Source: a virus. Taken from it: a stretch of 26,297 nt of DNA. Where the stretch lies: the IMG/VR virus record IMGVR_UViG_3300043449_001120, positions 1-26,297 of that record. One strand, 5' to 3'. Positions within the stretch are counted from its first letter, which is position 1. The number at the start of each line of letters is the position of its first letter. Shown piece by piece: positions 4,632-26,170 of the stretch. The translations under genes and the position numbers were made by a program. The notes beneath the pieces were generated by a model that worked only from the letters and a program-made list of their open reading frames with translations, was not told the origin of the DNA and searched no databases.

Positions 4632-7600
4632 TTAAACTCCTATAATTGAAAAATCTACTTCTGGTAATGGTGCTATATCATGTGCAGATACCCCATTAGA
4701 AAAATAAACTGAAATATTAGCTCCTGTTTTAGTTCTATCTATTATTACTACTTGAGGTTGTGCTAATTGGTCCCCACTAGTAGTTACAATTGTTCCAGTA
4801 ATTTTAGGAATATTATAATAATTCATTAATGTGTAGTCTACAGGGGTAACTAATTGATCTACAGTAACTGTTGTAGAATAACTACGTTCTTCTAAAGTTA
4901 CTCTATATCTAAATTTATCTAAAACTAATTCATATTGTGATGGATCTAAATTATTAACAACATACCTAAATTGAAAATATCTAAGAGCTTTTGGGCCTGT
5001 AACATGTCGCACATACCCATCAGAATTAGCAGTTGTGGTAAATGCGGAAATGTTTACATTACCATTAGCATAATAAGGATTTGTACTAGTATATCTAATA
5101 TCAACATTAGAAGAAATAATACCAGAAGTACCGTAAAAAGTAGTAGCACCATTAAGGTCTATCCATTGACGTAAGTTAACTAACTTATAAGAAGAACCTG
5201 CAATTTGTAAATTAGAAAATCCATTTGACCCTATAGATTTTCCATTAGCAAACCAAGATTCTCCAAGTACTATTGCATTAGCATTAACAGTTCCCGCAAT
5301 TAATGAAAGAACGTTGGCATTAGCAGTATCTCCATCATAGTTGCCTATAGAAACAATAGCATATATATTACTATAGTAAATAGAATCTTGAATTCCACTT
5401 GATAGAGTAGAATTAAGATTAGAATAAACTACAGGTGCAGCGCTACTATTAGAAACTCCTAATATATTTCCTATGCCTAAACTGCCTGAAAAATCAATAT
5501 CTCTAAGAATACCAGAACTCCCAGATTCTGTAATTTGATTTTCTCCAATTTGATCCGCATAATCTATCCAATTAGTTTTAATTGATTGAAAAGCATTTAT
5601 ATCTACCTGTGTGCCCACTGTTAAAACTGATCCAATATCTCTAATCTGTGTTTGGTACATAGCATTAGCAGTAGCTTTAATATCTGAAGCTGCTATAGCT
5701 ACACTCCAACCAGTTGCAGTACCATTAGAATTATCTACTACATTTGAGTTAAAAAGACTATCAGGTAATGAATAAGCTAACCCACCTGTGTTAGAAACAT
5801 AAAAAGATGCATAAGCTATTTCGCTATTATTTCTATTTGACACGAATGCAAAAGGAGTAGCAGGATCATCTTCAGAATAGGCAGCAAAAGTATTAGTAAA
5901 ATTTTGTTGGGTAGAAGTAAATGTATAGGCTATTACTGTTGAGCTTAATATATCAGATGTATCTTTAGTACGAACTAAATAAGAATATTCTCCAAATTGG
6001 TCTATATCTACTAAAATTCTATTAGTTCTAGCATCCACAGTTATTAACGAAGTAGCTTTAGGCCATGTTTCTAATAAAGTACTTTGACTAGTAGTATCAA
6101 TAGTTCCTAAAATTTTCTTAACTTGTACTTCTAATAAGTCAATGTCATAATTATCACCAGAAGTTTCATTAACTTTATATTGCCAAACTAAAATTAAACT
6201 ATCGCCTGTTTGTCCCACTGCAAAATTTTGAACATTTTGTGGCGGAGCAGTTTTTCCTATTATATTTTGTTGTTTTACTAGTGTTGATCCACGTATAGAT
6301 TTATTTAATGGAGTAACCCTAACTATTATAGAATTTGGATTACCAGATAGCCCTTTTTCAATGCTATCTAGTTTAATATTAATTTTATTATTTTCGTCTG
6401 CTCCAATAGCTGATACTTTTAATGTATTAAAAGATGTTAAATCTCCTGTTGGACCAGATACTTTATAAGAAATTTCATAATCTGTTACTTCTTGAGCAGT
6501 TATATGGTCAAATTCTATTATTATTCTAGTGGCTACTCCTATAGAAGTATCTTTATATAGTTGTTCTGTAATTAACAAATTATCTACTGCTCTGATGGGT
6601 ATTTTTTCGACATAAATTGTTTTTGTAACATAAGGGCTACGTCTTCCATATTTATTTACTGTTCTACCTTTAACAGAGTGATATCCTTCATCAACTTTAG
6701 CTATAACTCTTTTAGATGCTCCATCTAAAGATAAAGGTTGAAATGTACTAAAAGGGGCATTTATAGCATAAATTTTATTATTGGTTAAATTTAAGTCTCC
6801 TACATAATTATTAGAAAAATAATCTAGAGTAATAGTATTAGCACTTACATTTACATTACCAATAGTACCAATAGGATTTGGAGTAATATTAATGGCATAA
6901 AAAGCTGAAATATTAGAACTTATATTATCGTCTAATGTAATTCTATATATGCCATTAGCAGTTAAGGCTACGTTATAGGAAGGAGCTAATACATCGTAAG
7001 TAGAATCTATAATAGTATAAGATTTTTCTGCATTAAAGTTAATTGTATCATTAACTTCTATAGCAGGAATAGTATAAGAATTTGCATAAACTCTTAAATC
7101 TAATGTGTTGATTGCTGTTGGTAATGTATTTAAATTTATAGATACTTGAGAATTAGCTAAATTATCTAATCCATTTTCTAAAGTAAAATCAGAATAGCCT
7201 ATTCCATTAATAGACACAGTACAAAAATTTTTATTTAACACTGAAATACCTAATGGTTGTTTAAATACATGCGATTCTATTATATTACTAGTACTAATAG
7301 TATTTGTTCTAATAGTTTCTAAATAGGAACCTGTAATATATAATTGATTATTAGAAAAATATCTTGGATCTATAATCTGAGATATACCAATATAAAAAGG
7401 AGGGTTAGGTAGTAAAGAAGATAAAGTAGATTCCCCAGAAGAATCATTTAAAATATTAATAATAGAGTTACCTAAATAAAACGCCTCTACATTAGCACTA
7501 TACCCTACTATAGAAGTAGACTTATCTAAATAACCTAATAATCCAGCAGCTGATCCATCAGTTCCTAAAGAAGTTTTTTGATTTAAAGGTATACTAATTT

Positions 7601-10600
7601 TATCAGCGCCTCTTAACCCATCAAAAATAAAAGTGTTATTAACATCTAATACATGAATAGAACTTCCAAAGTTAGTATCAATTAATCCAGGCAATCCTTT
7701 AACAGTAAGAGTAATATAACCATTTGACCTTAGTACTGGATCGATATCAGTGATATCGTAGTTTGTAACTAACAATTGTGAATAACCAACAGTAGTAGTA
7801 AAACCATTTTTACCAAATAATCCTACTGTATCACCTTCTGTTACCCCTTCCATAGAAGATAGTGTTAATGTTTTAATATCATTAAAATTTGTATTTTCTC
7901 CAGCTAAAATAGTAGTATGAGAAGTAGAAGGAGGTGCATGAAAAAATTCTGTAGATAATTCATTAGTATATCCTGTTCTATCTACATAGTAGCTAAGTTC
8001 AATATCTGTAAATACTGATCCATCCATATCTCTTTGAGGAATAGCAGTTAATTCAAAGTTAGGAGGTGGAGGAGGTAATAAAGGATTAAAATAATCATTA
8101 AATACTAATGGAGTATAATTTATTAATACGTCTGAATCTATATATACATTACTAATATATTCTCTAGCTTCTACGAAAACAGTTTCATCATCTTCTCTTT
8201 TCATATTAGTAATTTTAAATAATTTATCTGAGGTAGATGTATATACATCATTAGGATTATTTATGTTGCCTAAGCTCCAAATATCATATCGTTTAGGAAA
8301 ATGAGAAGTACCCCAAGAACCTGTAAATGTAGAAAAGTTTTTAGTAGAATGATTATATTTTTTTAATGCTTTAACTCTTACAATATCATAGCCATTAGTT
8401 ACATTAGCAGTAGTTGCTAATTGATACTCTGTATTACTTAATAAATATAAATCAACTAGTCCAGAATCACTACTAGAAATTCTTAATACTAACGGCTTAG
8501 TATTAGCAGTAAAAACAGAAGAGTTAATACCTGGCATACCGATATGTTCTAATGAAATCCACGTATTACTATTTACAGAATTTTCAAAAAGAATTCCTCC
8601 ATATCCCCAAGCTACAGAAGCTGCACGTTGAGAAACAGCAATAACAGATCCAGGCATTAACTCAGAAGCTTCTATACCAGTTTTAAAACCAATTTTTCTT
8701 CTGCAATATTTTGGATCAGCAATAATATATTGTGCTAGGCGTATTGCTTGGCTTTTTCTAGTAACACCCTCTAAGTCAATTTTAATTGTATTTTCAATGT
8801 TATTTCTATCTTCTAATGCTTTAGGGTCATCAATCCGTAAAACTTCTCTTCTATAATGTAATGTTGGATCAGAATAACTTATATCAACTCCAGTAATTAA
8901 TTCTTCTTCAGAAATACCAGAAATAGCAATTGTATCTTTAATAATATTAGATTCATTAAATATAGCAACAGGCATTTGTTCCGGCTTATCTTGATAAATA
9001 GAAATTTTACCACCAGCATAAAATAGCAACCCTCTAAAAGTTAATGTTAGTATATTAATAATATCCATAACTTGTTTTTGGTCACTTATTACTGTATCTA
9101 AAATAAATCGTCTTTCTTTAATACTTGTTCCTATGGATAATCCTACTAGTAACTCTGAAATAGCCGTTTTAGTTCCACGAGGTTTATATCTATAAGTACC
9201 ATCAGCATTAGATTCAACTCCAATAAATCTACCTGTATTAGGGTCACATGCATCATTATAAACAGATACTTCATAAAAAGTATATTTATCAATATTTTCT
9301 TCTGGAATACCCAATCCATAACTTTGATTAGTTAATAAATCATAAATAATCCAAGCAGGATTTTGAGTCCAAGAATATATAAATTGTCCATCCCATAAAC
9401 CATCATATATAATAGGGTTTTGAGTTGTTAATACAGTATTTCCTGTTTTTTGTTGCCTATATCCATAAGAAGTTCTTTGAGAATCAGAAACTTCTATTTC
9501 TCTCCAATCAATTTCTCCATTTGCTAATATAGGTTGATTATAGTTAGAAGGTACTTTAATAAGTAATCCTTTAACCATTTGACTTATTGCAGGCAAACTA
9601 CCTTTATGCTCAGAAAATGCTTTAAGAGCAAATCCACTAGTAGCTGTTCTAGTATAAGCAATAGGATGTTCTGTTATTTCTGTCCATCCATAAAAAGAAA
9701 CATTGTCTTGTATTTTAACAGAAGAACTATCTGAAGAAGTTTTTTCAACTGTGAATTTATACCCATTTGGTGAAATAGATGAAAGAGGTATAGCAGCATA
9801 TATATCAAAAGAATATGCTATATTTGTTTTACCTTGAATCGTTCTAGTTTGACTTGTTAGTACTGTTGTACCTAATCTATCATAGACAGTAACTTTTATG
9901 CTAACAGAATATCCGATAACATCTCCGTTGTCTTTTTGCTTTTGTAGCCCGTTTAATATAAAATAAAATTTTAATGCGGTAATTGAAGAAACAGAAGTAT
10001 CTTGCTTATCTAATGAACTTTTTGGAACTCCACTTACATTACCAGATTTCAGCTCAACAGCTGATTGTAGTTTTTGAGGGGTAAAAATATAGTCACCAAA
10101 TAGAGGTAATCTAGCTTGTAAAATACTTCCATTATTATTTAATGTGTAAAATTTAGAATTATCAGCCTGACCTGAAATTAGTAAATCATCAATATTTCCT
10201 TCATTAAATTCAATTTCTGATAATCCATTTGGGTTAATTCTATATACAGGGCCTTCACCTAATCCCATAGTTATAAATAAAATATCTGTAGAAAATAAGC
10301 TATTAGGGTCTTCTTTTCCTCCACCACTTTTTCCACCGCCACCGCCATTATGAACTCTAATACTATTAGCAATATAAGAATGAACATGTGAAACAATAAA
10401 ATTATACACAGGTCCTTGACGTAAAAATTCAATAGAAATAATTTTTGTTAAGTTACCATCTACATTAATTAGATTTTCTCCAACAGAAAAATCTTTTAAT
10501 TCTTTATATTTTCCTGTTTCTTGCAAAATCCAATGATTAGGTGTTACATCTAAATAACCTTGTTCATGCGTTACTCTGTATATATGGTCTAATGTATGAT

Positions 10601-10799
10601 AAAAAGTTTCTTTTACTTCTGAAATAACTAATTGGCCTATTTCATTATAAGCCCATACTTTATCTCCAACTTCAATATCCTTTATAATTTTATAACCAGA
10701 TTCACAATAAATTGAGGTATTAGGGGCAAAACATCCTCCTCCTCCTCCTCCACCCTCAATTAAAGGTACTGCTTTATCATCAATATGTATTACAGCCAT
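4632..10799 (-). CDS. gpJ-like tail tip / host specificity protein with N-terminal Hint domain
   Basis: Central tip protein that closes the tail and contacts the host. The 2055 residues exceed lambda gpJ (about 1130). In order: a short leader (1-15), poly-Gly (16-22), a Hint/intein-like domain (23-151), a second Gly-rich stretch (152-161) and then the J body. That body starts with a Gly/Lys-rich segment followed by EDPN and EGP motifs, as J proteins usually do. The conserved core includes VPSNYNQP, GLWDGQFIYSWTQNPAW (about 465-482) and YGLGIPEENIDKYTFYEVS. A proline linker LPPPPPNFEL (about 908) leads into beta-sandwich/FN3-like domains, including about 1510-1600, and a conserved-looking beta C-terminus. 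The start overlaps the gpI stop as TAATG. The Hint insertion is the odd part and is described separately. Confidence 0.92.
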   Translation of the reverse strand: MAVIHIDDKAVPLIEGGGGGGGCFAPNTSIYCESGYKIIKDIEVGDKVWAYNEIGQLVISEVKETFYHTLDHIYRVTHEQGYLDVTPNHWILQETGKYKELKDFSVGENLINVDGNLTKIISIEFLRQGPVYNFIVSHVHSYIANSIRVHNGGGGGKSGGGKEDPNSLFSTDILFITMGLGEGPVYRINPNGLSEIEFNEGNIDDLLISGQADNSKFYTLNNNGSILQARLPLFGDYIFTPQKLQSAVELKSGNVSGVPKSSLDKQDTSVSSITALKFYFILNGLQKQKDNGDVIGYSVSIKVTVYDRLGTTVLTSQTRTIQGKTNIAYSFDIYAAIPLSSISPNGYKFTVEKTSSDSSSVKIQDNVSFYGWTEITEHPIAYTRTATSGFALKAFSEHKGSLPAISQMVKGLLIKVPSNYNQPILANGEIDWREIEVSDSQRTSYGYRQQKTGNTVLTTQNPIIYDGLWDGQFIYSWTQNPAWIIYDLLTNQSYGLGIPEENIDKYTFYEVSVYNDACDPNTGRFIGVESNADGTYRYKPRGTKTAISELLVGLSIGTSIKERRFILDTVISDQKQVMDIINILTLTFRGLLFYAGGKISIYQDKPEQMPVAIFNESNIIKDTIAISGISEEELITGVDISYSDPTLHYRREVLRIDDPKALEDRNNIENTIKIDLEGVTRKSQAIRLAQYIIADPKYCRRKIGFKTGIEASELMPGSVIAVSQRAASVAWGYGGILFENSVNSNTWISLEHIGMPGINSSVFTANTKPLVLRISSSDSGLVDLYLLSNTEYQLATTANVTNGYDIVRVKALKKYNHSTKNFSTFTGSWGTSHFPKRYDIWSLGNINNPNDVYTSTSDKLFKITNMKREDDETVFVEAREYISNVYIDSDVLINYTPLVFNDYFNPLLPPPPPNFELTAIPQRDMDGSVFTDIELSYYVDRTGYTNELSTEFFHAPPSTSHTTILAGENTNFNDIKTLTLSSMEGVTEGDTVGLFGKNGFTTTVGYSQLLVTNYDITDIDPVLRSNGYITLTVKGLPGLIDTNFGSSIHVLDVNNTFIFDGLRGADKISIPLNQKTSLGTDGSAAGLLGYLDKSTSIVGYSANVEAFYLGNSIINILNDSSGESTLSSLLPNPPFYIGISQIIDPRYFSNNQLYITGSYLETIRTNTISTSNIIESHVFKQPLGISVLNKNFCTVSINGIGYSDFTLENGLDNLANSQVSINLNTLPTAINTLDLRVYANSYTIPAIEVNDTINFNAEKSYTIIDSTYDVLAPSYNVALTANGIYRITLDDNISSNISAFYAINITPNPIGTIGNVNVSANTITLDYFSNNYVGDLNLTNNKIYAINAPFSTFQPLSLDGASKRVIAKVDEGYHSVKGRTVNKYGRRSPYVTKTIYVEKIPIRAVDNLLITEQLYKDTSIGVATRIIIEFDHITAQEVTDYEISYKVSGPTGDLTSFNTLKVSAIGADENNKINIKLDSIEKGLSGNPNSIIVRVTPLNKSIRGSTLVKQQNIIGKTAPPQNVQNFAVGQTGDSLILVWQYKVNETSGDNYDIDLLEVQVKKILGTIDTTSQSTLLETWPKATSLITVDARTNRILVDIDQFGEYSYLVRTKDTSDILSSTVIAYTFTSTQQNFTNTFAAYSEDDPATPFAFVSNRNNSEIAYASFYVSNTGGLAYSLPDSLFNSNVVDNSNGTATGWSVAIAASDIKATANAMYQTQIRDIGSVLTVGTQVDINAFQSIKTNWIDYADQIGENQITESGSSGILRDIDFSGSLGIGNILGVSNSSAAPVVYSNLNSTLSSGIQDSIYYSNIYAIVSIGNYDGDTANANVLSLIAGTVNANAIVLGESWFANGKSIGSNGFSNLQIAGSSYKLVNLRQWIDLNGATTFYGTSGIISSNVDIRYTSTNPYYANGNVNISAFTTTANSDGYVRHVTGPKALRYFQFRYVVNNLDPSQYELVLDKFRYRVTLEERSYSTTVTVDQLVTPVDYTLMNYYNIPKITGTIVTTSGDQLAQPQVVIIDRTKTGANISVYFSNGVSAHDIAPLPEVDFSIIGV
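10347..10733 (-). other. Hint (mini-intein / BIL-like) domain within gpJ
   Basis: Residues 23-151 of the J protein (129 residues) have the layout of a splicing domain without a homing endonuclease. Cys23 opens an N1 block (CFAPNTSIY). VGDKVWAYN (44-52) is the N2-like block. A TPNH motif (86-89) supplies the TxxH of block N3/B. The C-terminal block GPVYNFIVSHVHSYIANS ends RVHN, with His150-Asn151. The residue after Asn151 is Gly152, not Cys/Ser/Thr, so ordinary splicing is not expected; cleavage or bacterial-intein-like (BIL) chemistry is more likely. Glycine runs flank it on both sides. Confidence 0.9.
10734..10754 (-). repeat. GGA trinucleotide repeat encoding poly-Gly before the Hint domain
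   Basis: On the coding strand the codons are GGT followed by six GGA, giving residues 16-22 of J immediately before Cys23. The matching Gly run after the Hint domain uses alternating GGC/GGT codons instead. The GGA run is Shine-Dalgarno-like and prone to length changes in multiples of three. Confidence 0.85.
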
Positions 10800-11509
10800 T
10801 AACCTGTTTTCTCGATTTCATTAGAAGTATTGTGAAATAAGTCAGTTACATAAATTGTATCGTTTTCCCCATGATTAATAGTTTCTACGTGTAAACTAAG
10901 AATCTGCCCAGCTACTCTAGGTCTTCCATATATTAACGGTACACTAGCATTTGTATCCGTTGTATTTTGTAAAGCTCCAAACATATCATTACTTCTTTGT
11001 TCTTTTGAATTTGAGTTAGATGCAGCGCCAGGTGGCTTCATTAAAACAGACATTAAGCCTGTTAACACTAGTCCAATACCCATTTGTAATAATCCACCAA
11101 CAGTAACTAATCCTCCTAAAGCAACAGAAGTATTTAATCCTGCTGCAGTAAACATTCCAACTCCTGCAGGAAGAAAGAAAAAAGCAGCAGCTATAAGTAC
11201 AATTCCTAATAAAATACCAAGAAAACCCTTACCACCAGACCCTTCTATAATAGGTATTAACCATAGTTCATTATGTTTTAATATATCAGAATGATAATCA
11301 GATTTGTTTATTATAGTTCTATCTTTAGTTACTAACGATAAATTTTCTCTTAAACTACCAGACATAATTGTTTTAATATATCTTCTAAGTTTTGGAAATA
11401 AAGCATTTAAAGCATCTTTAATAGAAGATAAATTAGATACATCAAAAGTATGAACAGGAACACCTGTCATACTTTGTAATGCTGGATGAAAATGTAAAGT
11501 TAATAACAC
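10799..11509 (-). CDS. gpI-like tail assembly protein
   Basis: Equivalent of lambda gpI, needed for tail-tip assembly together with J. The 236 residues are close to gpI's length. The N-terminal ~90 residues look like the ubiquitin-like beta-grasp domain (MLLTLHFHPAL, then DELW-type HNELWLIPII). Two hydrophobic Gly/Ala/Leu-rich segments follow, about 95-122 and 128-158, typical of the family. The C-terminal segment contains VPLIYGRPRVAGQILSLHVE (about 188-207), a conserved feature of these proteins. The gene overlaps the JAB peptidase stop and the J start by one base each (TAATG), so the three are probably translationally coupled. Confidence 0.9.
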   Translation of the reverse strand: MLLTLHFHPALQSMTGVPVHTFDVSNLSSIKDALNALFPKLRRYIKTIMSGSLRENLSLVTKDRTIINKSDYHSDILKHNELWLIPIIEGSGGKGFLGILLGIVLIAAAFFFLPAGVGMFTAAGLNTSVALGGLVTVGGLLQMGIGLVLTGLMSVLMKPPGAASNSNSKEQRSNDMFGALQNTTDTNASVPLIYGRPRVAGQILSLHVETINHGENDTIYVTDLFHNTSNEIEKTG

Positions 11510-11877
11510 TATGTTAAACTCTCTTTAGTAAAATTTTTGAATCTTAAATAGTTTAATTCATCTACCCAATATTGGTAAAAAGTATTATTTGGATTACCTA
11601 CTATAAATTTATATTGTTTAAACATAGTAGCTCCTTTATCTTCTTCACTAGGTAATACATCATGAAGATTAGTATGACTATGAAAAATACCCCAACAATT
11701 ATCTGAGTAGTCAAATAATGCTATAGGATCTAATACAAAACTTTCTTTAGGGTATGGACTAATATTTTTACATGGTATATACTTATAATCCATGGTTATA
11801 ATTCCACAACATTCTATTTCTGAATTTTGATTCATATGGTCTTTAAATTGAGAAATTAATTGGTCGTACCTATCCAT
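11509..11877 (-). CDS. JAB/MPN (JAMM) metallopeptidase of the tail tip
   Basis: Corresponds to the N-terminal JAB half of lambda gpK, here a separate 122-residue protein. It shows an upstream Glu in IECCGII (about 21), then FHSHTNLHDVLPSEED (about 65-80), giving the JAMM zinc ligands His-x-His and a downstream Asp with the neighbouring Ser. The spacing between HSH and S is eight residues rather than the usual seven, a small deviation that may only reflect a loop insertion. It probably acts, with the NlpC/P60 proteins, in tip maturation or in opening the host peptidoglycan. It overlaps the NlpC/P60 gene by 22 bases and touches gpI. In gpK the JAB domain comes first; here it follows the NlpC/P60 genes. 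Confidence 0.88.
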   Translation of the reverse strand: MDRYDQLISQFKDHMNQNSEIECCGIITMDYKYIPCKNISPYPKESFVLDPIALFDYSDNCWGIFHSHTNLHDVLPSEEDKGATMFKQYKFIVGNPNNTFYQYWVDELNYLRFKNFTKESLT

Positions 11878-12287
11878 TTAAAACATCCTGTTGTGTATTG
11901 TTTATAGTAATTTCCATATACTGATATATGAGATTTGTGGTTTGGCATTATATGAAGAATTTTGTTTTGTCCTATATATAAAGCTGCATGATTATTAACA
12001 TTAGAAGAACCTAACATCATAATAATCATATTATATTTTTCTATTTTTTGAACTTTTTGCCACCCATATTTTTCACAAGTAACAATGTCCATAAGTCTTT
12101 CATGTGTTTTAAAATACCAATTTTCATCAATAATATTGCACCAGTCTCTTGTAGTATAAGGAATATTAATATCTAGTTTATCTTTATAAATAAATTGAAT
12201 TAAATTAAAACAATCAATTCCTTTAGTAGGATCTATGCCTAAGTGTTTAAAAGGTAATCCTATGTATTTATCCCATTCCATCGCCAA
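11856..12287 (-). CDS. NlpC/P60 cysteine peptidase of the tail tip (second copy)
   Basis: Predicted papain-like peptidase that cuts peptidoglycan peptides, the counterpart of the C-terminal half of lambda gpK. The 143 residues carry KGIDCFNLIQFIY with the nucleophile Cys26, NNHAALYIG with the base His100, and LHIMPNH with a likely third residue at His112. It is shorter than a whole gpK because the JAB domain is encoded separately just downstream. It overlaps the preceding paralogue by 28 bases and the JAB gene by 22 bases, indicating tight coupling. Several extra cysteines (residues 50, 71 and near the C-terminus) are unusual but unexplained. Confidence 0.9.
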   Translation of the reverse strand: MAMEWDKYIGLPFKHLGIDPTKGIDCFNLIQFIYKDKLDINIPYTTRDWCNIIDENWYFKTHERLMDIVTCEKYGWQKVQKIEKYNMIIMMLGSSNVNNHAALYIGQNKILHIMPNHKSHISVYGNYYKQYTTGCFKWIGTTN

Positions 12288-12658
12288 ATACTCGCAATTT
12301 TATTTCTCCAATCACTATTTAACATATCTATTTTAGAATATCTATTCTCTTCTAAATGTATAAATTTATTATTTGATATATACATACCAAAATGTATAGG
12401 AAATAAATTATTTGACTTAAATATTATTACATCATATTCTTGAATAGATGTCAAATTAACTTTTGTAGCAACGGTTATAGCCCAGGATTCTAAAAAATCT
12501 ATTGAATATTTTCTCATCCAACTTCTATCAGCTACTTCCCATAAATTATCAAGTACGTTAGAATTAAGCTGTTCTTTATAAATGGAATTTATTAGGGTAA
12601 TACAATTATTAGTTTTATAGTCATGTTTTAAATTAAGATATTTTGTATATTTATTCAT
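12260..12658 (-). CDS. NlpC/P60-like cysteine peptidase of the tail tip (first copy)
   Basis: A diverged paralogue of the next gene. It shares the ordered pattern KYLNL near the N-terminus, TNNCITLINSIYKEQL with Cys19, EYDVIIF, then FPIHFGMYISNN with His89, and FIHLEEN with His101 or Glu103 as third residue. The catalytic Cys and His are kept, so it may be active, but the region between them differs from the second copy. The 132 residues contain little beyond the peptidase fold. The start has a poor ribosome binding site and lies 47 bases after the gpL stop. Two adjacent peptidases could be specialised for different cross-links, or one may be structural; the sequence does not decide this. Confidence 0.78.
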   Translation of the reverse strand: MNKYTKYLNLKHDYKTNNCITLINSIYKEQLNSNVLDNLWEVADRSWMRKYSIDFLESWAITVATKVNLTSIQEYDVIIFKSNNLFPIHFGMYISNNKFIHLEENRYSKIDMLNSDWRNKIASIWRWNGINT

Positions 12659-23579: not shown

Positions 23580-24884
23580 CTAAAATCCTCTAATAATTTT
23601 AAATTTAACCCCGTATTCTTGTTGAACTACTTCTCTAATTGATTTCTGTAATAAAAATCTAGGAGCTCTTCGTGTAGTTTCATGTGCTAAATAGTTAGGA
23701 GAATAATAATATCTGATTATTTGATTTCTAAAATCTTGAATAACATTTAATGATTCTACAAATTGTCCTGTTCTATATGTTAGTACTGTAGGACTTAATG
23801 GAGGTCCTCTAAGAGGGCCATGAGGCATTATTTGTTCAGTTTTTTTTCTTATTAAAACAGACATTTGAATATCTGATATGGTTTTAACTGTAGTAATTTT
23901 TCTTTTAACAGGTTTATCTGACGAAGTAAATCGAATGTTACCTTTAGATATAATTGCAGAACCTACTAAATAAGAAATACCATGTTCAAAACCATTTTCT
24001 TTTAGCCAATCAGCTAATTCTTTAGCAGTAACAGAATTAGGTAATGTAAAAATATCTGCTATTGCTTTTAATATAGTGATTCCTAATTCGCCATTTATTT
24101 CTCGTATTATAATTTTTTGGACATCGTTCAATGCTTTAGTTATAGTAGCTGCTGAAAAAGAAACTTGTAAACTTAAAGTATTGTTATCTAACTTATTTAC
24201 TTTTATTGTAATATATTTATTTTTTACAATGTCATTCCAAGTAAATTTTATTGTTCTATTTTCTAACACACCTCTAAATACTACAGGAATATCTATATTT
24301 TGAGCTTTTAACATTATATTATTTCTTAAATAAGTATTAGCTTTTCCAGAAGTACTAAGAATATTTTTAATTTCTTCAGATGATTTTGCAGAAACTAATT
24401 TATTAAATAAATATGTAGTTGGAGCTGTTACTATATTTTTTACAATATTACCTTTTTCATCTAATGAATACGCTTGTAAAAAAGATTGACTTCCAGAAGA
24501 TAGCAAAATTCCTTCGCCACCGGCTAATTTAACAGCTTTATTTCTAAATATTTGATCATTATTTTCTGTAGTACTTACTAATTTTTGCTCTCTAACTTCA
24601 ATTTTATCATCTATTTGTATATAATAGTCAGGTTGAAACCCTATTCCTGTTTTAGCAACAATTTGTGACCCTCCTAAAGCATCTACAAAAGCTTTTTCAA
24701 CTTGGGAGTTTAATTTTTTAGCTAAACTTGTTAATATAGGTTTATATTTAGAATTTAATCTAGAAGCTCCATATAATTGTTGAGAAGTTTTTAACGCTAA
24801 TATTAAAGCATTACCTCCAGGAGCTTTTATTCTAACACCGGGACTTGTTACTTCTGATGTAACAGTGCTTTTAATTGAATACAT
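23580..24884 (-). CDS. Probable neck / head-closure protein, family uncertain
   Basis: The only gene between the head-tail adaptor and the tail terminator, the place where phages of this type encode head-closure (stopper) or neck proteins. At 434 residues it is much longer than HK97- or lambda-type stoppers (about 110-130). The N-terminal half is mixed, with helical segments such as ILTSLAKKLNSQVEKAFVDAL (about 50-70). The C-terminal ~80 residues (VLTYRTGQFVESLNVI, then IRYYYSPNYLAHE and FLLQKSIREVVQQEYGVKF) look like a compact conserved domain and may be the part that docks to the tail. No catalytic motif or membrane segment was seen. The role rests on position, so it is an inference. The ATG overlaps the adaptor stop. 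Confidence 0.6.
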   Translation of the reverse strand: MYSIKSTVTSEVTSPGVRIKAPGGNALILALKTSQQLYGASRLNSKYKPILTSLAKKLNSQVEKAFVDALGGSQIVAKTGIGFQPDYYIQIDDKIEVREQKLVSTTENNDQIFRNKAVKLAGGEGILLSSGSQSFLQAYSLDEKGNIVKNIVTAPTTYLFNKLVSAKSSEEIKNILSTSGKANTYLRNNIMLKAQNIDIPVVFRGVLENRTIKFTWNDIVKNKYITIKVNKLDNNTLSLQVSFSAATITKALNDVQKIIIREINGELGITILKAIADIFTLPNSVTAKELADWLKENGFEHGISYLVGSAIISKGNIRFTSSDKPVKRKITTVKTISDIQMSVLIRKKTEQIMPHGPLRGPPLSPTVLTYRTGQFVESLNVIQDFRNQIIRYYYSPNYLAHETTRRAPRFLLQKSIREVVQQEYGVKFKIIRGF

Positions 24885-26170
24885 TAGATTATTCTATATA
24901 AATCTAAAATTCTACGAATATGAGGAGGAAAATTAGCACTAAGTTGTCTATCTTGTACATTTTCACCTTGTAAACTAAAACTCTGAGATTCTTGTCTATC
25001 TTTATGTAACATTTTAATATAATCCATAGTTGCCATTATTATATCATTTGGTACATCATTGGAATCATATCCTGCTTTGTAAAAAACTCTAACTCCTCTA
25101 GGGTAGTTTCTAAAAGTTGATGCACCTATTAAAGATAAGTCAAAATTACCAGCACCACTTCCAATATTTTTAGTTATTTCTCCAGTATCTTGGTAAAAAA
25201 GAAAATCTTCTGTAGTAGCATGGTCATCTTTAAAAGATGCTGTATTATTATCTCCATCAAAATGAATTAATAATACTGTATTATCATCTGTAGAATATTG
25301 ATATGAAGGAGCAGAAAAATTAGCTGTATGTTGTGCAACATGAGTAATTCTAGATTCATCAATAAAACCATTATAATATTGATAGTTAGAAGAAATATTT
25401 TGTCTACCAAATTCAATAGAAGCTTCTAAATCAGGCATTACATTAGCTACTGAACTTAAAGTTTTAATAATTGTTCCATCTCTAAATAAATTAAAAGTAG
25501 TACTTCTTCTACTAAGTTCTATGTGATGAAAAGAATTAGCCGTATATCCTGTAGTAGTAGCATGTGATACATTTATAGTTTCAATCCCTGCTGATATAGC
25601 TCGAAAAGTAATTCCATTGGTATTACTATACCCAAAACTCCAATAATTATTTGCATCTTCGACCTGTGAGATAAAAGTTGAATTAAAATTATATGAGTTG
25701 GCCCTAATTTGTAATTCAATAGTAAAATCTGAATTTCCAAAATACCAATCATCAGATGTTGGTACAGTTAAATAATTAGTTCCATCAAAAAATCCAGATG
25801 AATCTCCAAATTTTTTATACCTAGATTTCAATATGGCATTATTTATACTTTCTATAGAGTGATTAGGAGAACTTCTATTAACTGAAGAACCATCAGATTG
25901 TGGATTATTTAATTTTCTATAGGCATTTCCATCATATTCTACGATGCTATAGACATTCTGCAAAGGTAATTTATTTACAAAAATAGAAGCTTTTCCTCCA
26001 TCAAATACATCAGAATAAGAATTACTTAAAATTTCATGTCCAATATAGTTCTCAGTAGCAGAGCAAGCATAGTAAATAAGATTACTCAATCTAGCATCTT
26101 CGTTATTACTAGTAATATTTAAATAATTTTTAATATTATCTAGAGTAACATATGGATATTTACCATACAT
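24884..26170 (-). CDS. Head-tail adaptor (HK97 gp6-like) with inserted LamG-like domain
   Basis: Adaptor that attaches under the portal. The first ~85 residues match the connector family: VTLDNIKNYLNITSNNEDARL and LIYYACSATENYIG (helices), then KLPLQNVYSIVEYDG. The fold resumes at EDFLFYQDTGEI (321-332) and ends RGVRVFYKAGY (358-368), VPNDIIMATMDYIKML (373-388) and a C-terminal tail. Between them lie about 220 residues with LamG/concanavalin-like motifs: FGDSSGFFDGTNYLTV, SDFTIELQIRA, FHHIELSR, FIDESRITHVA (269-279) and TVLLIHFDGDN. Plain adaptors are about 100-200 residues. The start has AAGGAG at suitable spacing. It follows the capsid gene after a terminator, so its transcription depends on read-through or an unseen promoter. 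Confidence 0.85.
   Translation of the reverse strand: MYGKYPYVTLDNIKNYLNITSNNEDARLSNLIYYACSATENYIGHEILSNSYSDVFDGGKASIFVNKLPLQNVYSIVEYDGNAYRKLNNPQSDGSSVNRSSPNHSIESINNAILKSRYKKFGDSSGFFDGTNYLTVPTSDDWYFGNSDFTIELQIRANSYNFNSTFISQVEDANNYWSFGYSNTNGITFRAISAGIETINVSHATTTGYTANSFHHIELSRRSTTFNLFRDGTIIKTLSSVANVMPDLEASIEFGRQNISSNYQYYNGFIDESRITHVAQHTANFSAPSYQYSTDDNTVLLIHFDGDNNTASFKDDHATTEDFLFYQDTGEITKNIGSGAGNFDLSLIGASTFRNYPRGVRVFYKAGYDSNDVPNDIIMATMDYIKMLHKDRQESQSFSLQGENVQDRQLSANFPPHIRRILDLYRII

What the first reader, a model, noticed from the sequence alone, without database searches (positions are those of the whole stretch)
10347..10733. Splicing-like Hint domain embedded in the N-terminal poly-glycine of the tail tip protein J, with Gly at the +1 position
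Seen: Cys23 start, TxxH block (TPNH), C-terminal His150-Asn151, no endonuclease insert, Gly runs on both sides, +1 residue Gly. Known: inteins need Cys/Ser/Thr at +1 to splice; BIL/Hint domains without it tend to cleave or perform side reactions. Inferred: the domain may cut off the 22-residue leader, leaving a J that begins with a Gly/Lys-rich N-terminus like ordinary J proteins, or form a thioester that attaches J to another tip component or to the host surface. The layout suggests timed self-processing during tip assembly or infection.
Basis: partly seen in the sequence, partly recalled or inferred. Interest (0 to 1): 0.8.

Follow-up and report, generated by a model that had tools for sequence, protein, structure and literature searches.

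The report
Self-cutting domain in phage tail-tip linkers
A small self-processing (intein-like) domain sits inside the glycine-rich N-terminal linker of a phage tail-tip protein, and many uncultivated phages carry related domains in the same kind of linker, so part of the phage infection machinery is probably made from a protein that cuts out a piece of itself and rejoins (or releases) its ends.

Summary
Residues 23-151 of the 2055-aa tail-tip protein J are a complete mini-Hint domain (C1, TPNH, terminal HN, no endonuclease) between two Gly runs, with Gly at +1. It is not a one-off: 79 distinct full-length Hints of this family were tallied, almost all in uncultivated phage contigs: in J, in the neighbouring gpI-like protein and in a few other tail ORFs. 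They begin with Cys and end with His-Asn. The +1 residue is Gly or Lys (one Arg), never Cys/Ser/Thr, including in 21 cases sampled without bias at +1. The closest solved relatives are bacterial intein-like (BIL) domains. Hint-free J homologues have a continuous Gly/Lys run there, the leader before the Hint is under strong purifying selection, and Hint and J-core distances correlate. That fits excision with rejoining better than removal of a 22-residue leader, but sequence cannot prove it. A Lys at +5 to +7 occurs in all 21 unbiased cases. I file it as an A-type BIL-like domain with a new host protein and fixed position (new variant of a known kind): splicing by amine attack about 0.5, cleavage only 0.3, trans-ligation of tip proteins about 0.1.

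The parts
4632..10799 (-). tail-tip / central fibre protein J homologue, 2055 aa
   Evidence: PF13550 Phage-tail_3, PF24801 FNIII-A_GpJ; phrog_31 central tail fiber J E 7e-85
10752..10799 (-). N-extein leader MAVIHIDDKAVPLIEG (residues 1-16)
   Evidence: conserved in Hint-bearing and partly (VPxIxG) in Hint-free J; pooled dN/dS 0.09 in window clade
10734..10754 (-). N-side Gly run, residues 16-22, ending at the -1 residue Gly22
   Evidence: sequence; -1 is Gly in 69 of 79 distinct Hints
10347..10733 (-). BIL-like mini-Hint domain, residues 23-151 (129 aa), no endonuclease insert
   Evidence: C1, F2, T, H, V, H, N invariant in 36 representatives
10731..10733 (-). Cys23, predicted thioester-forming residue (position 1 of the domain)
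   Evidence: invariant in 71 distinct Hints
10533..10544 (-). block B TPNH (residues 86-89)
   Evidence: T and H invariant in A2, N nearly invariant
10347..10352 (-). terminal His150-Asn151, predicted Asn-cyclisation site
   Evidence: HN in 71 of 71 distinct Hints
10332..10346 (-). C-side Gly run, residues 152-156 (Gly152 is +1)
   Evidence: +1 is G or K in all Hints of the J N-terminal linker
10329..10331 (-). Lys157 (+6), conserved Lys downstream of the junction
   Evidence: first Lys after +1 at +5, +6 or +7 in 21 of 21 unbiased cases
10799..11509 (-). gpI-like tail assembly protein (predicted Ubl domain, Gly linker IPIIEGSGGKG, hydrophobic plug region), Hint-free here but carrying the Hint in other phages
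   Evidence: phrog_32 E 2e-28; SAMP1-like weak match E 1e-3; relatives with Hint in this linker
11509..11877 (-). JAB-domain tail protein (part of a lambda-K-like set)
   Evidence: PF14464 Prok-JAB E 3e-8

Best explanation
The insert is an A-type bacterial-intein-like (BIL) self-processing domain that J carries as a vertically inherited part of its gene. Shown by sequence: an intact Hint catalytic set, an invariant Cys1 and His-Asn end, no +1 nucleophile, a position inside the Gly/Lys linker just before the J core, and purifying selection. Inferred: Cys23 takes over the Gly22 acyl group (thioester), Asn151 cyclises and frees the C-terminal part of J, and an amine then attacks the thioester, so that the Hint leaves and the leader is rejoined to J. 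The acceptor is most likely the alpha-amine of Gly152 (Lys in other lineages), as proposed for type A BILs; the conserved Lys157 side chain is a possible alternative. The product would be a J with leader and an unbroken Gly/Lys run, like the Hint-free homologues, with some cleaved by-product. Why the phage keeps it (delay of tip assembly, protection of the linker, folding aid) is not known.
For: Hint fold and residues. +1 never C/S/T: G45/K33/R1 of 79, and G15/K5/R1 of 21 sampled without bias at +1; true inteins picked up by the same model in phage helicase and polymerase genes have +1 Cys or Ser. Hint-free J of the same clade read GSKGGKGGGG where Hint-bearing J read GAKGG^KGGGKGG. Leader dN/dS 0.09; Hint dN/dS 0.15-0.18, like the J core. 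Hint and J-core distances correlate, Mantel r 0.87 in the window's clade, 0 of 2000 permutations: co-descent. Type A BILs with HN and no +1 nucleophile can splice by attack of the freed amine on the thioester (PMC4031507).
Against: Characterised type A BILs mostly cleave, splicing being minor (PMC4031507; PMC7664689), and one review says they cannot ligate (PMC7765530). After in-silico removal of the Hint the linker is about 6 residues longer than in Hint-free J (29.5 versus 23.7), so the site is not a perfect empty allele. Leader conservation could also reflect a role in the precursor or as a free peptide. No protein-level data exist and no cultivated phage with this J architecture was found.
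Confidence: 0.5

Rival explanations
1. Cleavage only: the BIL acts as a built-in protease, cutting at Gly22 and/or Asn151, so that mature J begins with GGGGGK and the leader (with or without the Hint) is released or serves before cutting, for example in assembly.
For: Known BILs give mainly cleavage products (PMC7664689; PMC4031507). +1 Gly/Lys has no side-chain splicing nucleophile of the usual kind. Some Hint-free J have only a very short leader, such as MKIYEVSGYKGGKGG in L036, so a J without the leader could work.
Against: Leader kept in Hint-free J of the same clade and under dN/dS of about 0.09 in the window clade.
Confidence: 0.3
2. Ligation to another amine: the Gly22 thioester (or, in relatives, the Ubl-Gly thioester of gpI) is attacked by a Lys or N-terminal Gly of another tip protein or of J itself, giving an isopeptide or trans-spliced cross-link in the tail tip.
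For: A Lys at +5 to +7 in 21 of 21 unbiased cases, mostly absent in Hint-free J. Second-best PDB relative is Tetrahymena BIL2, reported to join a ubiquitin-like domain to Lys side chains (PMC8616854). In other phages the Hint follows the predicted Ubl domain of gpI, whose linker was predicted to be a JAB cutting site (PMC1779556).
Against: The Lys may just be linker chemistry. The gpI Hints were found with a pattern that required Lys at +5. The Ubl fold of gpI rests on a medium-confidence model and weak fold matches plus literature. The window's own gpI has no Hint.
Confidence: 0.12
3. Selfish relic: a former intein that lost its endonuclease and its +1 nucleophile and stays because a flexible Gly linker tolerates it, with no function for the phage.
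For: No endonuclease in any copy, 129-163 aa. Gly linkers are permissive. Presence needs several gains or losses on the J tree (6 changes, at least 3 forced).
Against: Catalytic residues invariant over very diverged copies and dN/dS of about 0.17. Long co-descent with J. An inactive relic should decay.
Confidence: 0.08

Closest known systems
A-type bacterial intein-like (BIL) domains, e.g. Clostridium thermocellum BIL4 (PDB 2LWY)
   Same: Hint fold, Cys1, block B TxxH-type motif, VYNF-type block F, C-terminal VHN, no endonuclease, no +1 Cys/Ser/Thr
   Different: Here in a conserved phage tail-tip protein at a fixed Gly-linker position and co-inherited with it; BILs are described from variable regions of non-conserved bacterial proteins (PMC7765530)
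Class 1 mini-inteins (e.g. gp41-1, Npu DnaB)
   Same: same fold and splice-junction residues Cys1 and HN; Hint-free alleles of the host protein exist
   Different: +1 nucleophile absent in every tail-tip copy; site is a flexible linker, not an active-site motif
BIL2 of the Tetrahymena polyubiquitin-like (BUBL1) locus (PDB 6TMM, 6Y75)
   Same: second-best profile match; in gpI-type relatives the BIL follows a predicted Ubl domain
   Different: window copy lies in J, not next to a Ubl domain; no conjugation shown
Lambda tail-tip proteins J and I
   Same: J core family and gene order NlpC, JAB, I, J
   Different: lambda proteins have no Hint domain (own knowledge); lambda I is in the virion as the plug (PMC10721106)
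PT-HINT domains of polymorphic toxins
   Same: Hint domain with HN end, Pfam PT-HINT match above cut-off
   Different: no toxin domain; N-terminal position; Gly-linker context

Membership tests
A-type BIL domain | Hint fold with intein blocks A, B, F, G | tested here: met
   Pfam, profile and fold matches; alignment A2
A-type BIL domain | C-terminal His-Asn | tested here: met
   71 of 71 distinct copies
A-type BIL domain | no nucleophile conserved at +1 | tested here: met
   G/K/R only, 79 copies; 21 sampled without bias at +1
A-type BIL domain | no homing endonuclease | tested here: met
   129-163 aa per copy
A-type BIL domain | resides in variable regions of non-conserved bacterial proteins | tested here: not met
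   sits in conserved phage tail-tip proteins at a fixed place; this is a habit of described members (PMC7765530) rather than a mechanistic criterion, so I call the domain A-type BIL-like
A-type BIL domain | autocatalytic cleavage with some splicing | not testable with these tools
   needs expressed protein
Class 1 intein | Cys/Ser/Thr at +1 | tested here: not met
Class 1 intein | uninterrupted homologues with the extein sequence joined at the insertion point | tested here: met
   Hint-free J with continuous Gly/Lys run; linker lengths differ by about 6 residues
Lambda-type J tail-tip protein | J core domains (Phage-tail_3, FNIII-A) and gene order after gpI | tested here: met
BUBL-type Ubl-BIL conjugation system | BIL directly after a ubiquitin-like domain | tested here: inconclusive
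   true of gpI in other phages if its N-domain is Ubl (phrog_32; medium model and weak fold matches); not in the window
BUBL-type Ubl-BIL conjugation system | isopeptide conjugation of the Ubl | not testable with these tools
   needs biochemistry

The most novel reading that the evidence does not exclude
Siphophage tail tips contain an ATP- and enzyme-free ligation system: BIL domains in the Gly linkers of J and of the Ubl-bearing gpI make Gly thioesters that are passed to a conserved downstream Lys or to the N-terminal Gly of tip proteins, giving branched or cross-linked tip components, a prokaryotic counterpart of Tetrahymena BUBL conjugation.
Probability: 0.1. Interest if true: 0.88.

Novelty: new variant of a known kind. 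Interest (0 to 1): 0.62.

Why it matters
BIL domains have had no clear biological role. Here related copies sit repeatedly, under purifying selection, in the same Gly linkers of conserved phage tail-tip proteins, which gives a concrete setting in which to test what a BIL is for. It also touches an old open point of lambda tail assembly, namely what the Gly linker and Ubl domain of gpI and the flexible start of J are for. Annotation that treats J as one chain may be wrong about its mature form in these phages.

Tried and rejected
Homologue searches with the wide Hint alignment A2 failed because no stretch is conserved enough; a CFPAGT pattern was too short. The genome-contig scan gave one real case (L181, Magnetococcales MAG) and three chance hits in other reading frames or proteins. 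Isolated phages: the Hint regions I opened lay in terminase, helicase, polymerase or other genes; no J or gpI with a Hint was seen, but not every listed record was opened. The +1 tally of the first pattern search is biased by the pattern (RRN codon), so an N-side pattern and the J-core search were used for an unbiased count. The mid-J Hints of L082, L090 and L169 were checked for a clean empty site; Hint-free relatives have a variable loop there, so there is no clean reading. I rejected a toxin reading: no toxin domain, no PADLOC match. No paper in the searched library was seen to describe this architecture, which is not proof of absence.

Full report
Observation. The window is a 26.3-kb virus record. 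On its minus strand lies a siphophage tail module: major tail protein and tape measure, minor tail proteins, two NlpC/P60 ORFs, a JAB ORF, a gpI-like ORF and the 2055-aa J homologue. J begins MAVIHIDDKAVPLIEGGGGGGG, then residues 23-151, CFAPNT ... TPNH ... VYNF ... IRVHN, then GGGGGKSGGGKEDPN. Pfam Hint and PT-HINT pass their cut-offs on the N-terminal piece, the best PDB sequence match is the BIL domain 2LWY, and the AlphaFold2 model is a confident Hint fold matched by inteins and BILs alike.

Relatives at the same place. A search with the J core, which does not depend on the Hint, gave 75 loci. Many carry a 129-131-aa Hint at exactly this position, others have none. A DNA pattern for VHN[G/K]GGGKG gave 98 stretches, nearly all of them Hint domains in phage tail genes. 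A third search from the N side (GGCFPAGT), unbiased at +1, added further J-type cases and a few unrelated Hint proteins. In all, 79 distinct full-length Hints were tallied. Cys1 and the terminal His-Asn are invariant in the 71; the T and H of block B are invariant in the 36 representatives of alignment A2.

Where they sit. Most are in the J N-terminal linker. A set of contigs has the Hint in the gpI-like protein, between its N-terminal domain and its hydrophobic region, in the Gly linker. Three of these also have a second Hint in the middle of J, in a loop that varies in Hint-free relatives. Two Gly-rich fibre-like ORFs and three tandem pairs were also seen. With the Hint removed, Gly makes up 67% of the 12 residues around the junction, against 11% at random positions of the same proteins; because two of the three searches used Gly-rich patterns, this figure is partly built in.

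The +1 residue. It is Gly (45), Lys (33) or Arg (1). In the 21 cases sampled without bias at +1 it is Gly 15, Lys 5, Arg 1. True inteins found by the same model in phage helicase and polymerase genes have Cys or Ser there. A further regularity was not expected: the first Lys after +1 is at +5, +6 or +7 in 21 of 21 unbiased cases; in Hint-free J of the same clade it is mostly missing. These cases are related to each other, so 21 is not a count of independent events.

History. On a tree of 56 J cores, Hint presence needs six changes, at least three forced by well-supported branches. Among Hint-bearing J, Hint and core distances correlate (Mantel r 0.63 for 37 rows, 0.87 for the 21 rows of the window's clade, no permutation of 2000 as high). 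dN/dS of the Hint (0.15-0.18) is like that of the core (0.14-0.20). The Hint has thus been inherited with J for a long time and kept intact.

Splicing or cutting. Hint-free J of the same clade read VPRIIGSKGGKGGGG... (L064), Hint-bearing ones IPYIVGAKGG^KGGGKGGG... (L139). The leader is therefore a native part of J, and in the window clade it has pooled dN/dS of 0.09 (16 codons, six sequences). This favours rejoining over disposal. Against it: linkers of Hint-bearing J are about six residues longer, and known type A BILs mostly cleave. Type A BIL splicing is explained by Asn cyclisation and attack of the freed amine on the N-terminal thioester (PMC4031507), a route open to Gly or Lys at +1. 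I put splicing at about 0.5, cleavage only at 0.3, ligation to another amine at about 0.1, and a functionless relic at about 0.1.

The gpI link. Iyer and colleagues described gpI (TAPI) as a ubiquitin-like domain joined by a Gly-rich linker to a second domain and predicted that the JAB peptidase cuts there (PMC1779556). Structures of lambda place the C-terminal part of gpI in the virion as a plug (PMC10721106; PMC11101478). Finding a BIL in that linker in other phages, together with the report that Tetrahymena BIL2 attaches a ubiquitin-like domain to Lys (PMC8616854), makes the conjugation reading worth testing. My own support for the Ubl fold of these gpI proteins is modest: phrog_32 match, a medium-confidence model (pLDDT 73) and fold matches that are nearly all ubiquitin-like but weak (E above 0.03).

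Limits. All Hint-bearing tail-tip loci but one come from viral contigs of IMG/VR; the exception is a bacterial MAG (L181). The isolate and literature searches are as wide as the named collections and no wider. No activity has been measured.

Noticed in passing
L082, L084, L090, L091, L106, L113, L152, L169: gpI-like tail assembly proteins with a Hint domain in the Gly linker after the predicted Ubl domain.
   Followed up: partly
L082, L090, L169 (mid-J, around residues 681-985 of the long ORF): Second Hint in the middle of the J-like ORF at a GDVYSCSY-type loop, not in a Gly run, with Lys at +7.
   Followed up: partly
L141, L154, L168: Two Hint domains in tandem in one Gly-rich N-terminus.
   Followed up: no
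L151, L156: Hint domain inside a Gly-rich, fibre-like ORF of about 430 aa.
   Followed up: no
L181: Tail-protein Hint with +1 Gly in a Magnetococcales MAG, the only bacterial-genome case found.
   Followed up: no
window 11856-12287 and 12260-12658: Two neighbouring NlpC/P60-like ORFs plus a separate JAB ORF in place of one lambda-K-like protein.
   Followed up: no
window 24884-26170: Head-tail adaptor-like ORF whose ends match adaptor families while residues of about 83-323 match baseplate and virion structural proteins, as if a domain were inserted.
   Followed up: no
L203 (Ruminococcus phage NatCom_3870): Three BIL-like Hint ORFs close together in one phage genome, with Ser or Ala at +1.
   Followed up: no
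L204, L205 (Alcaligenes phage Afa-NA1, Salmonella phage Sen-NF): Annotated tail protein with a Hint near its C-terminal end, +1 Met; the same sequence around the Hint in two phages recorded from different hosts.
   Followed up: no
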